From: Chionoecetes opilio
Lineage: Eukaryota > Arthropoda > Malacostraca > Decapoda > Majidae
Direction of reading: 5' to 3'
DNA: 64,000 bases
Assembly: GCA_016584305.1 (NCBI GenBank)
Contig: JACEEZ010016131.1
Location: 1 to 64,000 of the forward strand
Shown here: one piece after another, positions 17,343-52,233 of the stretch
Numbering within the stretch: the first letter of the stretch is position 1
Layout of the letters: each line of letters opens with the position of its first letter
Made by a program: the position numbers and the translations under genes
The notes under the pieces: generated by a model
What the model was told of the DNA's origin: nothing
Database searches by the model: none
Seen by the model: only the letters and a program-made list of their open reading frames with translations

Positions 17343-18088
17343 CAGTCAAACCTCGATATAACGGACCTCGATGTAACGGACTTCAGATATAACGGACTCC
17401 TATTGCGTGACTTTTTTTTTTTTTTTTTTTTTTTTTTTTTTTTTTAATTTATTTTTATTACATCAGACCGTTTATCGCCGCTCGAATTGTCAACTCAACA
17501 TAAATTATTATTTTCTCATTTTACTTTGGAATGCTTGGGTTTTAAGGAGTTTTTAAGTATATCACAGATTAAGATATAATATCTATTATAAGGAAGGAGC
17601 CTGTGTTGCTAGTGATTTAGTGGTACACGTAGAAGGTGTGTATTGTTTAAAATGTGACTATTAGTGTTATGGCGTGGCCGCTGCTAGACTGTCTCCCTGT
17701 CACCTCAACACCTTAAATCACCCTAATCTAAGGTGACACACAGTACTACACTGACCTAAATAGTGACACGTGTATAGAACTGCACTTCACAACCATATAA
17801 TGTATATAAAACTGAGCATTAGTCATGATAATATGCAATAATTTTGACAGCCACGGGTTGTGTCTGGCTTCTTGTTTGTTTACCTTTCTCTAGAGCTTGA
17901 GCTTGACTAGCTACACGGTCTGGTTGTGTTTGTGATTATTTCTCATTTATTTCACAATTTTTCCGTTTTTTCATATATTTTATATTTTTCCATCCCTGGG
18001 AAAATACCCTCGCTATAACGGACAATCGGCTTTAACGGACCACTCCTCCCCTCCCCCCCCTTTAGTCCGTTATATCGAGGTTTGACTG
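17343..18088. mobile_element. Family B Tigger-like MITE inserted in the Gypsy LTR
   Basis: The ends begin CAGTCAAACCTCGATATAAC with TA on both flanks. The left end has TAACGGAC three times, at end-relative positions 17, 32 and 48. The right end has one direct copy and two inverted copies 17 bp apart. There is no ORF. Removing it joins two LTR pieces that align with the LTR at 54074-54564. Confidence 0.9.
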
Positions 18089-18299
18089 TATGTATGTTCA
18101 GTTTTGTACACATTTATTTAGAAGTCCAATAAGGAACATAGAAATATTTACAACCAGATATGTAGTGAACCCTAAGACAACAGTTTAGGTGTTTTTTTTC
18201 TTTTTTCTGTGAAATTTCTTTCCAAAATAAGGGTGCGTCTTCCAAGATGCAGCGTCTTATAAGCCGTAAAATACGGTACTGTATATTAATATATATGTA

Positions 18300-18685
18300 C
18301 ACTGTGAGGTAACCTACCTTTTAATCAGGCTTCCCTGCCTGCCTTCCCTACCCAGGTAATATCTAGGGTGTGGGAGAGCGGGTGGTAGCTGGAGATACCA
18401 CCTCCGTTGCTGGATCTGGGCCCAAGGCTCAATGGCCTCAGATCACTTGCCAATACAACAGTTTGACACAACAAAAAAAACACAAATATAGTAGACAAAC
18501 TATATGCTCAGTGATGGATCATAAAAACTCTGCCTGGCTGCCTGGGCCTCTAACCTCACTGACTCACATCATGACACCCTACCTACCCCCCACCCACAAA
18601 AAAAAAAAAAAAAAAAAAAAAAGGAAGAGGATCCAAATAATGTCGAAGTCCGAATAATGAGGGTCGAGTACGAGAGGTTTTACTG
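18300..18685 (-). mobile_element. Family G element, one end plus adjoining interior
   Basis: The right end, read inward, is CAGTAAAACCTCTCGTACTC followed by TTCGGAC-type motifs. The interior matches the inverse of 30215-30440 inside the complete family G copy. A poly(A)-like run at 18598-18622 separates the end from the interior. The left end is missing. Confidence 0.7.
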
Positions 18686-18833
18686 TATATATTATATATA
18701 TATATATATATATTTTATATAAACACTACCCTCCCGAGTTTTCACGCTATGCGAGTTTTGCGATCCTCGAGTTTTGCGCTGAGTCCTAAATTCTTATCAT
18801 CCCGACTTTCGGCATTATATCCCCGAGTTTCGC

Positions 18834-19185
18834 TTTTTTTTTTTTTTTTTTTGGTGTGTGTGTGTGCCTACAGCGCCGTTAGGCAGTGACCTCCAGGAGT
18901 GGGATGGTAGGCCCTGGAGATTAACTTGAGGGCTGTGATGGTTGGGCCCTCGCCCGTGGTGGCGCAGACAGAATTTCTATAGTGACGCCTGTGATTAGAG
19001 GCTCATGCCGCCCCCTGTATCCTCCGATGCACTCGCAATCGAAGGTAGAGCTAATGGCCAGCATGTGGGTGTTCTTAGGCCACTCAACAGTGCAGAGAAA
19101 GATTTTAAGTGGATTTTACAGCCCTCATCAAGGATCGAACTCGGATCACTGAGAACGCCACTCGGAGACTTCTTCTTCTTGTGAC
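18834..19185 (-). mobile_element. tRNA-derived-type SINE (full-length copy)
   Basis: On the minus strand the element starts near 19185, contains GAGTTCGATCC at 19132-19142 (a Pol III B-box match), and ends in an A-run seen as T at 18834-18852. A convincing A box is not visible. Copies with the same body occur at 28590-28953, 46530-46758, 57600-57870 and 60708-60983. Confidence 0.7.
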
Positions 19186-19867
19186 CTTTTCTGCTTAGTA
19201 TCACTTTGTAGGTCGTCTGTCAAGCTCGTGCTCGAGCTTGACATATATCTTGACGCTAACTACTCTGCTACCGCCTCCCATAAGAGACGTACGGGACACT
19301 CTTCCTTCCTTCCTGCTTAGTATAGTATATAATAGGCTTAGTATACTTGTATGTAGTTTTGCTTTGTTTTTTTCCATTTGTTTGTGTTTTTCTCTACAGG
19401 AACAGCCGGTGTCGCATAATATGGGTAACACCTCGAAATAAGTAGCACCTTACCTTACTATTTACCACAAAATACTCCTTTATAAGTGATTAACCATGAC
19501 GTGTGTGGTACTGTGGTTTCTGGAGGTACTGGAGGAGACAGGAGAGAAGAGAGGAAGGCATTGTGACAGTGTTATTGTCGTATAACACTGTCACACAACC
19601 ATCAGCTGACAAGATATGTGTCAGGCTCACTCACTCAGACCAAAACAGCATCCGCTGGGTGACTCCCAACTCAAGCTCAATCTCAAGCTCCTCTCCTCCT
19701 TCCTCTTCTCTACGTAGTGTTGGCCGAAGCCACCACCCCGGGAGGCGGGTCACAAACCCTAGGCTAACATCCAGTAACCATTCACTGCTGGGTGGACAGG
19801 GGCTTGGGGTATTTTCAGGATATTTTTTTTGGAAAAAAGTGAGTCTTATAAGCTGTAAAATACGGTA

Positions 19868-51429: not shown

Positions 51430-51593
51430 TATATATATATATTCTTGTTTTCTGTTTAAACGCCAGTTTTTCCCATAATATTTTATGAGGTTAGACAGCC
51501 AGTTTGAAATGCTTCCAACTACAGGAGAACTCATTTAACCAGCATTCAAAACAATGGCAGCCTCAAAACAATGGCACTAATATACCCAGGCAT

Positions 51594-51777
51594 ATTTTTT
51601 TTTTTTTTTTTTTTTTTCGGGCCTCCAGCAGGGAGGACCACGGGCTAGCTTAGCCCGTCAGAGAGAGATCCTGTGAAAAAAGAGAGGAGAGTGTTCGTGT
51701 TGCTGGCGTGCAACACGAGGACTGGCTTGTCCATCCTGACGAGGAGTGCGGGGTAGAAAGGGGCACTCAGCAGGATA
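51594..51777 (-). mobile_element. Short poly(A) retroposon with 10-bp target duplication
   Basis: ACCCAGGCAT at 51584-51593 and 51778-51787 bounds a 184-bp insert that starts with a T-run (A tail on the minus strand). No Pol III box is obvious. It may be a SINE or a truncated LINE 3' end. Confidence 0.8.
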
Positions 51778-51864
51778 ACCCAGGCATTAATTAGGTATAA
51801 TTATTTCAAAAACTGAGAAAATCGGCAGAAATTTAGTTAAAATTTGGCGGGGTACGCAGGGTTG

Positions 51865-52126
51865 GCAACCCTTTCATCCCTTTCACTGGTAAACTCTGGA
51901 ACTCTCTTCCTGTTTCTATTTGTCCACTTTCCTATGACTTACATCTTTTCAAAAGAAGAGTAACAAGACACCTCCCGAACTAAATTGGCTCACCCCTCTT
52001 TTTTATTTTATTCTCTTACTGTCTTCTTTATAGGGACTGGCAACTAAGCGGGCTTTGTGTTACCCATTTTTGTTGTGCCCTTGGCCAGTTCCTTGTGATG
52101 TAAGAAAAAAAAAAAAAAAAAAATAT
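51865..52126 (+). mobile_element. LINE 3' end with poly(A)
   Basis: Short plus-strand reading NSGTLFLFLFVHFPMTYIFS and the tail GGGACTGGCAACTAAGCGGG ... GCCCTTGGCCAGTTCCTTGT followed by an A-run resemble a widespread invertebrate LINE 3' end. 5' truncated. Confidence 0.55.
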
Positions 52127-52233
52127 TGGATGTTGGGCAATTCCATAAGAGTAACTCTCAAAACAACGGCAAAATGAGTTATCCGGCATGCGCTTCCCCC
52201 CGAGGGTGCCGGATAAACGAGGTTTTCCTGTAT

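What the first reader, a model, noticed from the sequence alone, without database searches (positions are those of the whole stretch)
17343..52230. A shared hidden layout of motif iterations in the ends of about twelve TIR families
Directly seen: families A, B, C, D, E, G, I, J, K, M, N and P have different end sequences, yet one end of each carries three direct copies of a family-specific motif. Core starts counted from the first base: A ATACGAG 16/31/47; B TAACGGAC 17/32/48; C ATTTCCCGGA 14/29/45; D CGGCA 20/35/52; E CGAGTTTCGCG 12/28/44; G T(C/T)CGG 18/33/50; I TATAACTCGG 13/28/45; J CCGG 20/35/51; K TAAGTCG 15/30/(47 weak); M TCCGG 19/34/51; N CATCCGAC 16/31/48; P TTCGAAC 17/33/(49 weak). 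Steps are always 15-17 bp. Inference: each motif is the binding site of that family's CENP-B-type domain, and geometry is conserved while sequence diverges. As I remember it, human Tigger1 also iterates a TTGCG motif after CAGGCATACCTCG, so the rule may extend to the whole pogo/Tigger group.
Basis: partly seen in the sequence, partly recalled or inferred. Interest (0 to 1): 0.88.

Follow-up and report, generated by a model that had tools for sequence, protein, structure and literature searches.

The report
Shared six-site code in transposon ends
In one likely crustacean genome, fourteen of sixteen cut-and-paste transposon families with differing sequences repeat a family-specific motif three times at 15-17 base steps at one end, and all fourteen families whose other end was found carry there one copy plus two reversed copies; these are likely docking sites for the transposon's own enzyme and would let it tell the two ends apart.

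Summary
With four families that I added (Q, R, T, U), 14 of 16 families choose a spacing of 15-17 when any spacing from 8 to 30 is allowed, against 24 of 1600 shuffles; autocorrelation peaks only at lags 15-17 and 31-32. New: the other end has its own shared layout: one direct site, a site-sized gap, then two INVERTED copies 15-18 bp apart at about bases 42-58 and 59-75, in 14 of 14 families with a known 3' end. One of these, Q, was tested on an end not seen before. The triple-type end lies upstream of the transposase DNA-binding domain in 13 of 13 copies with both ends around one (of 30 loci examined). The enzymes are Tigger/pogo type with a CENP-B-like domain. Binding is inferred, not shown. 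Ten families form one group by end sequence. Prior art: fungal pogo/Fot1 elements have two 17-bp direct repeats per end (PMC2836289). Extension to human Tigger and Drosophila pogo rests on recalled sequence.

The parts
17343..17398 (+). family B 5' end: three direct sites TAACGGAC at 17/32/48; element 17343-18088
   Evidence: 40 of 40 scored genome copies (1339 first-look candidates) cover the 68-base query at 96% or more
18010..18088 (-). family B 3' end: one direct site, G-rich gap, two inverted copies (near 44-62, far 61-79 from the tip, step 17)
41709..41764 (+). family A 5' end, ATACGAG 16/31/47
44993..45071 (+). family A 3' end, inverted pair step 15; a 5' end facing it is at 45771 minus strand
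51374..51429 (-). family C 5' end, ATTTCCCGGA 14/29/45 (third copy ATTTGCCGGA); element 49352-51429
49352..49430 (+). family C 3' end, inverted pair step 17
2786..3828 (-). second family C element, 5' end at 3828 minus strand
39624..40656 (+). family D element: 5' end CGGCA 20/35/52; 3' end (40656 minus strand) inverted pair step 18 in this copy; the 6-copy consensus reads 17 by eye
42728..43642 (+). family E element: 5' end CGAGTTTCGCG 12/28/44 (first copy mutated); 3' end inverted pair step 16
30138..30193 (+). family G 5' end T(C/T)CGG 18/33/50
46773..46828 (-). family I 5' end TATAACTCGG 13/28/45
24226..25033 (-). family J, a damaged C-like copy inside K: 5' array from 25033 minus strand, 3' end at 24226 plus strand with inverted pair step 16
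22716..25102 (-). family K element: 5' end 25102 minus strand TAAGTCG 15/30/(47 weak); 3' end 22716 inverted pair step 17
43693..44931 (-). family M element: 5' end 44931 minus strand TCCGG 19/34/51; 3' end 43693 (flank TG) inverted pair step 15
46030..46085 (-). family N 5' end CATCCGAC 16/31/48 (third copy one mismatch); 3' end not found
22163..22218 (-). family P 5' end, TTCGAAC at 17 and 33 only

Best explanation
The ends of these transposons share one asymmetric layout of six motif copies, three in a row at the 5' end and one plus an inverted pair at the 3' end, and each copy is likely the binding site of one two-headed (CENP-B-type) DNA-binding domain of the transposase. Shown: at the 5' end the sites lie at about bases 10-25, 25-40 and 41-56 from the tip, direct, with steps 15 then 16-17 (or 16 then 16), so that the first and third are 31-32 bp apart. 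At the 3' end site 1 sits at the same distance from the tip, a gap of about one site follows, and two reversed sites lie at about 42-58 and 59-75. Read along the whole element, five sites point one way and only the last 3' site is turned round. Inferred: the terminal site at each end sets the cut at the same distance from the DNA-binding domain; sites one and three of the 5' end, three helical turns apart, lie on one face of the DNA; the inner sites recruit further transposase and make the two ends different, which would favour 5'-3' pairing over 5'-5' or 3'-3' pairing. The 5' array lies upstream of the transposase gene and could also let the enzyme repress its own gene.
For: Spacing: 14 of 16 five-prime ends, shuffles 24 of 1600; 8 of 8 consensus ends. 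Three-prime ends: 13 of 13 families with shuffle p 0.007 or less each plus Q, whose 3' end was looked up only after the layout was fixed (p 0.001 in each of two copies); best spacing 15-18 out of 8-30 in 14 of 14, against 261 of 1400 shuffles. The family's own motif ranks first (8) or second (5) of 17 motifs (S included) on its own 3' end in 13 of 13. A motif-free view: a CpG starts at 19-21 in 15 of 16, at 34-36 in 16 of 16 and at 51-53 in 14 of 16 five-prime ends; at 19-21 in 12 of 14, 46-48 in 10 of 14 and 62-64 in 9 of 14 three-prime ends; the best window in shuffles averages 7.4 and 6.9. In some families, A, E and K for instance, each 5' unit has two CpGs 7-9 bp apart, as a two-headed site would. 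Transposases found with such ends carry CENP-B_N, HTH_Tnp_Tc5 and DDE_1 (I, C, G; the T frame has the last two), and the I-family one aligns with the CENP-B DNA-binding domain 1hlv. The triple-type end is upstream of the DNA-binding domain in 13 of 13 copies with both ends. The layout survives 28-47% protein identity.
Against: No binding, footprint or transposition data exist here. Of 30 loci with a CENP-B-type hit (chosen by me from 150 scored hits, mainly by score and frame length), 13 showed both ends around it, 5 only one end (L017, L021, L022, L029, L031) and 12 none; the 12 are unexplained, and some may be host genes or older elements. Eleven of 16 families are not linked to a transposase. 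Some copies have lost a site (L020; L033 and L028). J and P fail the free-spacing test. S, which I first counted, turned out to be an internal array of an element with another layout and was withdrawn. On the 3' ends the two inner CpG positions (10 and 9 of 14) are near the top of the shuffle values (95% point 9, largest 11), so there the motif scan carries the weight.
Confidence: 0.72

Rival explanations
1. Ancestry alone: the families inherited one ancestral end and the layout is a relic, with no present function of the inner sites.
For: Ten of 16 families form one group at 28 or more of 56 identical bases; tip bases such as CA at 1-2 and C at 10 are widely shared.
Against: Motifs differ between families but agree among the sites of one family, at both ends and in both orientations, so the sites change together, as sites of one protein would; six groups remain at that threshold with S set aside (A, P, Q, U, E with R, and the ten); proteins are down to 28-47% identity.
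Confidence: 0.12
2. Slippage: tandem duplication of a 15-16 bp unit made the array.
For: In family B the units are almost perfect 15-16 bp tandem copies.
Against: Steps differ within an array (15 then 17) in D, G, I, K, M, N and T; the 3' end has inverted copies at fixed distance, which slippage does not make.
Confidence: 0.05
3. The sites serve a host factor (for example a domesticated CENP-B-like repressor) or the transposon promoter, and the transposase binds only the terminal site.
For: The 5' array is upstream of the gene; 12 of 30 CENP-B-type hits show no transposon end nearby and some may be host genes.
Against: Each family has its own motif version at both ends, including the 3' end far from the promoter.
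Confidence: 0.11

Closest known systems
Tigger family of pogo transposons (PMC9219625, passages read)
   Different: The passages read describe short TIRs (about 20 bp, 8-33 bp; a table row for sponges gives 20-741); no iterated or inverted inner sites are mentioned in them.
Fungal Fot1/pogo elements: Trem, Aft1, Tan1, Pot2, Fot1 (PMC2836289, passages read)
   Same: Direct repeats of 17 bp inside the ends, for which binding by the HTH and CENPB domains is suggested there.
   Different: Two copies, in inverted repeats of 42-49 bp, so in both ends; here three copies with 15-17 steps at one end only and an inverted pair at the other.
Drosophila pogo and its 12-bp site (Wang, Hartswood and Finnegan 1999; title seen in reference lists; paper not held)
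   Same: By its title, an HTH domain of the transposase recognises a 12-bp sequence within the inverted repeats.
   Different: Not comparable here; the recalled pogo end gives steps 16 and 17 (recall only).
CENP-B and the CENP-B box (structure 1hlv)
   Same: Homologous DNA-binding domain; bipartite site with two CpGs (CENP-B box recalled).
   Different: The recalled box pattern is not enriched: 8 matches with one mismatch in the window, 6.7 expected.
Sleeping Beauty IR/DR ends (recalled, no call)
   Same: More than one transposase site per end.
   Different: There, as recalled, two direct sites far apart in both ends; here contiguous 16-bp steps and an asymmetric inverted pair.

Membership tests
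pogo/Tigger transposons | TA target-site duplication | tested here: met
   the representative 5' end of all 16 families follows TA; 13 of 14 representative 3' ends do (M: TG)
pogo/Tigger transposons | short terminal inverted repeats | tested here: met
   18-22 of the first 22 bases identical, then divergent, in pairs of A, B, C, D, G, I, K, R, T, U; not tested so for N and P, which have no known 3' end
pogo/Tigger transposons | transposase with CENP-B_N, HTH_Tnp_Tc5 and DDE_1 | tested here: met
   families C, G, I all three; T HTH_Tnp_Tc5 and DDE_1; D only the DNA-binding part
pogo/Tigger transposons | own transposase for families A, B, E, J, K, M, N, P, Q, R, U | tested here: inconclusive
   no linked transposase in the held DNA; filed with the group by end anatomy only
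pogo/Tigger transposons | DD29-36D catalytic spacing (PMC9219625, passage) | tested here: met
   34 residues between in I, C, G; 32 in T
pogo/Tigger transposons | placement in a transposase tree | not tested
   only names of relatives seen: tigger transposable element-derived protein 7-like, in decapods and others
Fot1-type ends (two 17-bp direct repeats in both TIRs) | direct repeats in both ends | tested here: not met
   3' ends show no direct signal at lags 14-18, z -0.5 to 0.6
CENP-B box | recalled pattern TTCG-N4-A-N2-CGGG | tested here: not met
   8 matches against 6.7 expected; mean best mismatch 3.0 against 3.5 in shuffles

The most novel reading that the evidence does not exclude
All Tigger/pogo transposons, from crustaceans to humans, use one six-site asymmetric end code (three direct sites at the 5' end; one site, a gap and two inverted sites at the 3' end) that sets ordered pairing of the two ends, and the centromeric CENP-B box is a single unit of this ancestral code.
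Probability: 0.35. Interest if true: 0.85.

Novelty: new variant of a known kind. Interest (0 to 1): 0.66.

Why it matters
The Tigger survey whose passages I read (PMC9219625) describes these ends as short inverted repeats, mostly 8-33 bp. If the 75-bp, six-site code is general, it would change how these elements are bounded, classified and used as genetic tools, it would predict DNA sites for domesticated transposase domains (CENP-B, and JRK, TIGD and POGO-derived proteins, names recalled), and it would make the question of how this superfamily pairs its two ends directly testable.

Tried and rejected
Family S (L023:3940) was first counted as a 17th family; the search for more copies and a look at the flanks showed homology running on past the supposed end, so it was withdrawn and the headline counts were redone without it; still include it. 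Family A first looked like an exception with three direct copies at both ends; the paired ends were of two different copies, and its true 3' end fits. Poly(T) next to the 5' array is not general: 4 of 16 families, B, C, G, I (S aside). A hairpin at the 3' end: clear for E, I, K (z -4.8, -5.8, -5.2), weak for A, B, C (z -1.5 to -2.2) and absent for D, of 7 ends folded; none for 3 five-prime ends; taken as a by-product of the inverted sites. Relatives in viral contigs and in bacterial and archaeal genome contigs: none confirmed (scans by short peptide patterns). The genome search with the N end returned nothing, not even the window's own copy, so it is uninformative. Printed Tigger or pogo end sequences were sought in papers without success. 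Literature on an iterated or inverted inner layout in Tigger/pogo: searches, with passages read in PMC9976928, PMC7325037, PMC9219625, PMC5371812, PMC4585704, PMC6947457, PMC2836289, PMC2170065 and PMC11178893; among these passages only PMC2836289 describes iteration, for fungi. No paper was read whole, and most subscription papers are not held.
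Full report
WHAT WAS CHECKED. The window lies in a 1.94-Gb assembly of 20,818 contigs. Of the 120 relatives listed for one of its transposases (276 found), 29 bear an organism name and 21 of these are decapod crustaceans (counted by hand), so a crustacean is likely but not shown. 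I scanned 310 kb (the window and loci L009-L038) at every TA-preceded position on both strands, low-complexity starts left out, and took from the listing four further families: Q, R, T, U. A fifth, S, was later withdrawn.

FIVE-PRIME ENDS. The score counts columns in which three blocks agree. With any spacing of 8-30 allowed, 14 of 16 families choose 15-17 for both steps; J and P do not; 24 of 1600 shuffles do. The pairs are 15/16 (A, B, C, Q, U), 15/17 (D, G, I, K, M, N, T) and 16/16 (E, R). The sum is 31 or 32 in all 14, which is three turns of B-DNA at 10.5 bp per turn. Autocorrelation over bases 9-62 peaks only at lags 15, 16, 17, 31 and 32. Consensus ends of the eight families with three or more copies in the held DNA behave in the same way. 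The representatives were partly chosen because of the iteration; the control without that choice is: of 47 TA-flanked, C-starting, short-TIR pairs, 20 of 26 assigned to a family score 5.4 or more on exactly one end (one is a mispairing), and 0 of 21 others do. Among all 136 inverted pairs not assigned to a family, 2 score 6.5 or more, and by their sequence both contain family A arrays; 31 of 59 assigned pairs do.

THREE-PRIME ENDS. The partner ends share most of the first 22-24 bases and then differ. Using each family's own 5' motif as a weight matrix on bases 26-95, the best pair of inverted copies beats shuffles at p 0.007 (D) or 0.003 (the other 12) in 13 of 13 families; near sites begin at 41-46 and far sites at 56-62 from the tip, step 15-18. 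Direct-orientation scores on the same stretch are lower in all 13. As a test on unseen sequence I took Q, known only from its 5' end. The genome search gave 165 candidates, of which 40 were scored and all 40 matched at 93% or more. Four copies were fetched; two, L041:519-1568 and L042:384-1568, have both ends with TA on each side, the other two show no 3' end in the stretch held. Their 3' ends carry the inverted pair at 44-58 and 59-73, step 15, p 0.001 each. That makes 14 of 14. N and P have no known 3' end.

A VIEW WITHOUT MOTIFS. CpG dinucleotides form a lattice: 5' ends at 19-21 (15 of 16), 34-36 (16 of 16), 51-53 (14 of 16); 3' ends at 19-21 (12 of 14), 46-48 (10 of 14), 62-64 (9 of 14). 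The best window in shuffles averages 7.4 (95% point 9, largest 12) and 6.9 (95% point 9, largest 11). So the 5' lattice and the terminal 3' site are strong, and the two inner 3' positions are only marginal by this measure. In A, E and K, for example, each 5' unit has two CpGs 7-9 bp apart, which fits a site read by two helix-turn-helix domains.

THE ENZYMES. Open frames found with such ends: I (L030:1253-3094), C-type (L029:1241-3196, only its 3' end was found in that locus; L025 and L026 have both ends around broken frames), G (L033:2224-3990, minus strand), T (L034:1472-3103) and D (only the DNA-binding part, L014, L016, L018, L019). Pfam gives CENP-B_N, HTH_Tnp_Tc5 and DDE_1 for I, C and G; the I protein matches CENP-B in structure 1hlv over both domains. 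One search scored 150 of 811 candidates for the HTH_Tnp_Tc5 domain; I fetched 30 loci around such hits. Thirteen had both ends around the hit (L014, L016, L018, L019, L020, L024, L025, L026, L027, L028, L030, L033, L034), and in all 13 the 5'-type end was upstream of the domain. Five had one end only (L017, L021, L022, L029, L031) and 12 none. In several of the 13 the array has decayed; L020 keeps two of three sites.

HOW INDEPENDENT. At 28 or more of 56 identical bases the five-prime ends fall into ten related families (B, C, D, G, I, J, K, M, N, T), the pair E and R, and A, P, Q, U alone (S set aside); at 25 of 56, just above the 99% point of shuffles, all 16 join one group. Proteins of five families are 28-47% identical. 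So common descent is likely, with the geometry kept while both motif and protein changed. J is a damaged C-like copy inside K.

MECHANISM. Shown: the layout, its orientation to the gene, the domain content. Inferred: one domain per site; the terminal site, at the same distance from both tips, positions the cut; inner sites recruit further subunits and distinguish the ends. Read along the element, five sites point one way and only the last 3' site is reversed. Confidence in the layout is high; in the binding inference fair; in ordered pairing moderate.

PRIOR ART AND NOVELTY. Fungal Fot1/pogo elements have TIRs built of two 17-bp direct repeats, suggested to be bound by the HTH and CENPB domains (PMC2836289, passages). 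The title of Wang et al. 1999 states that pogo transposase recognises a 12-bp sequence within the TIRs (reference lists; paper not held). Tigger2 ends are said to resemble the CENP-B box (PMC4585704, passage). I found no description of the three-plus-inverted-pair layout in the searches and passages named under Tried and rejected, which do not cover most subscription papers. From memory only, Tigger1 and Tigger2 ends fit the same layout, with 5' steps 15 and 16 and inverted copies at 40 and 57, and at 42 and 58; this is a lead and not a result.

Noticed in passing
L014:2474-3271, L016:6574-7530, L018:2473-3254, L019:2492-3422: Short (0.8-1.0 kb) family D elements that keep a frame for only the CENP-B-type DNA-binding domain (106-181 aa frames, no DDE seen); they could encode repressors that occupy the ends.
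   Followed up: partly
L023:3781-4008 and L044:1-149: Family S: several GTGTACGAA-like copies, some at 16-bp steps, in both orientations; an element with another iterated layout. 302 first-look candidates in the genome, 40 scored.
   Followed up: partly
window 6897-7921: TA-flanked foldback element with ends CAGTCGGCGCAAAAAAACTTAGGA and two 420-bp arms 98% complementary only 2 bp apart; iteration score low (3.8).
   Followed up: no
L015:7859-9433, L019:1598-2374, L028:5348-6187, L033:171-1010: Another TA-flanked repeat family with ends like CCGTATTTTACGGCTTATAAGACGC and no iteration; served as an in-genome control.
   Followed up: partly
L009-L013, L015, L023, L032, L035-L038: CENP-B-type hits, several in long open frames, with no matching transposon end found around them; possible host genes or older elements.
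   Followed up: no
window 17412-17445 and 5' ends of C, G, I: Long T runs after the 5' array in 4 of 16 families.
   Followed up: partly
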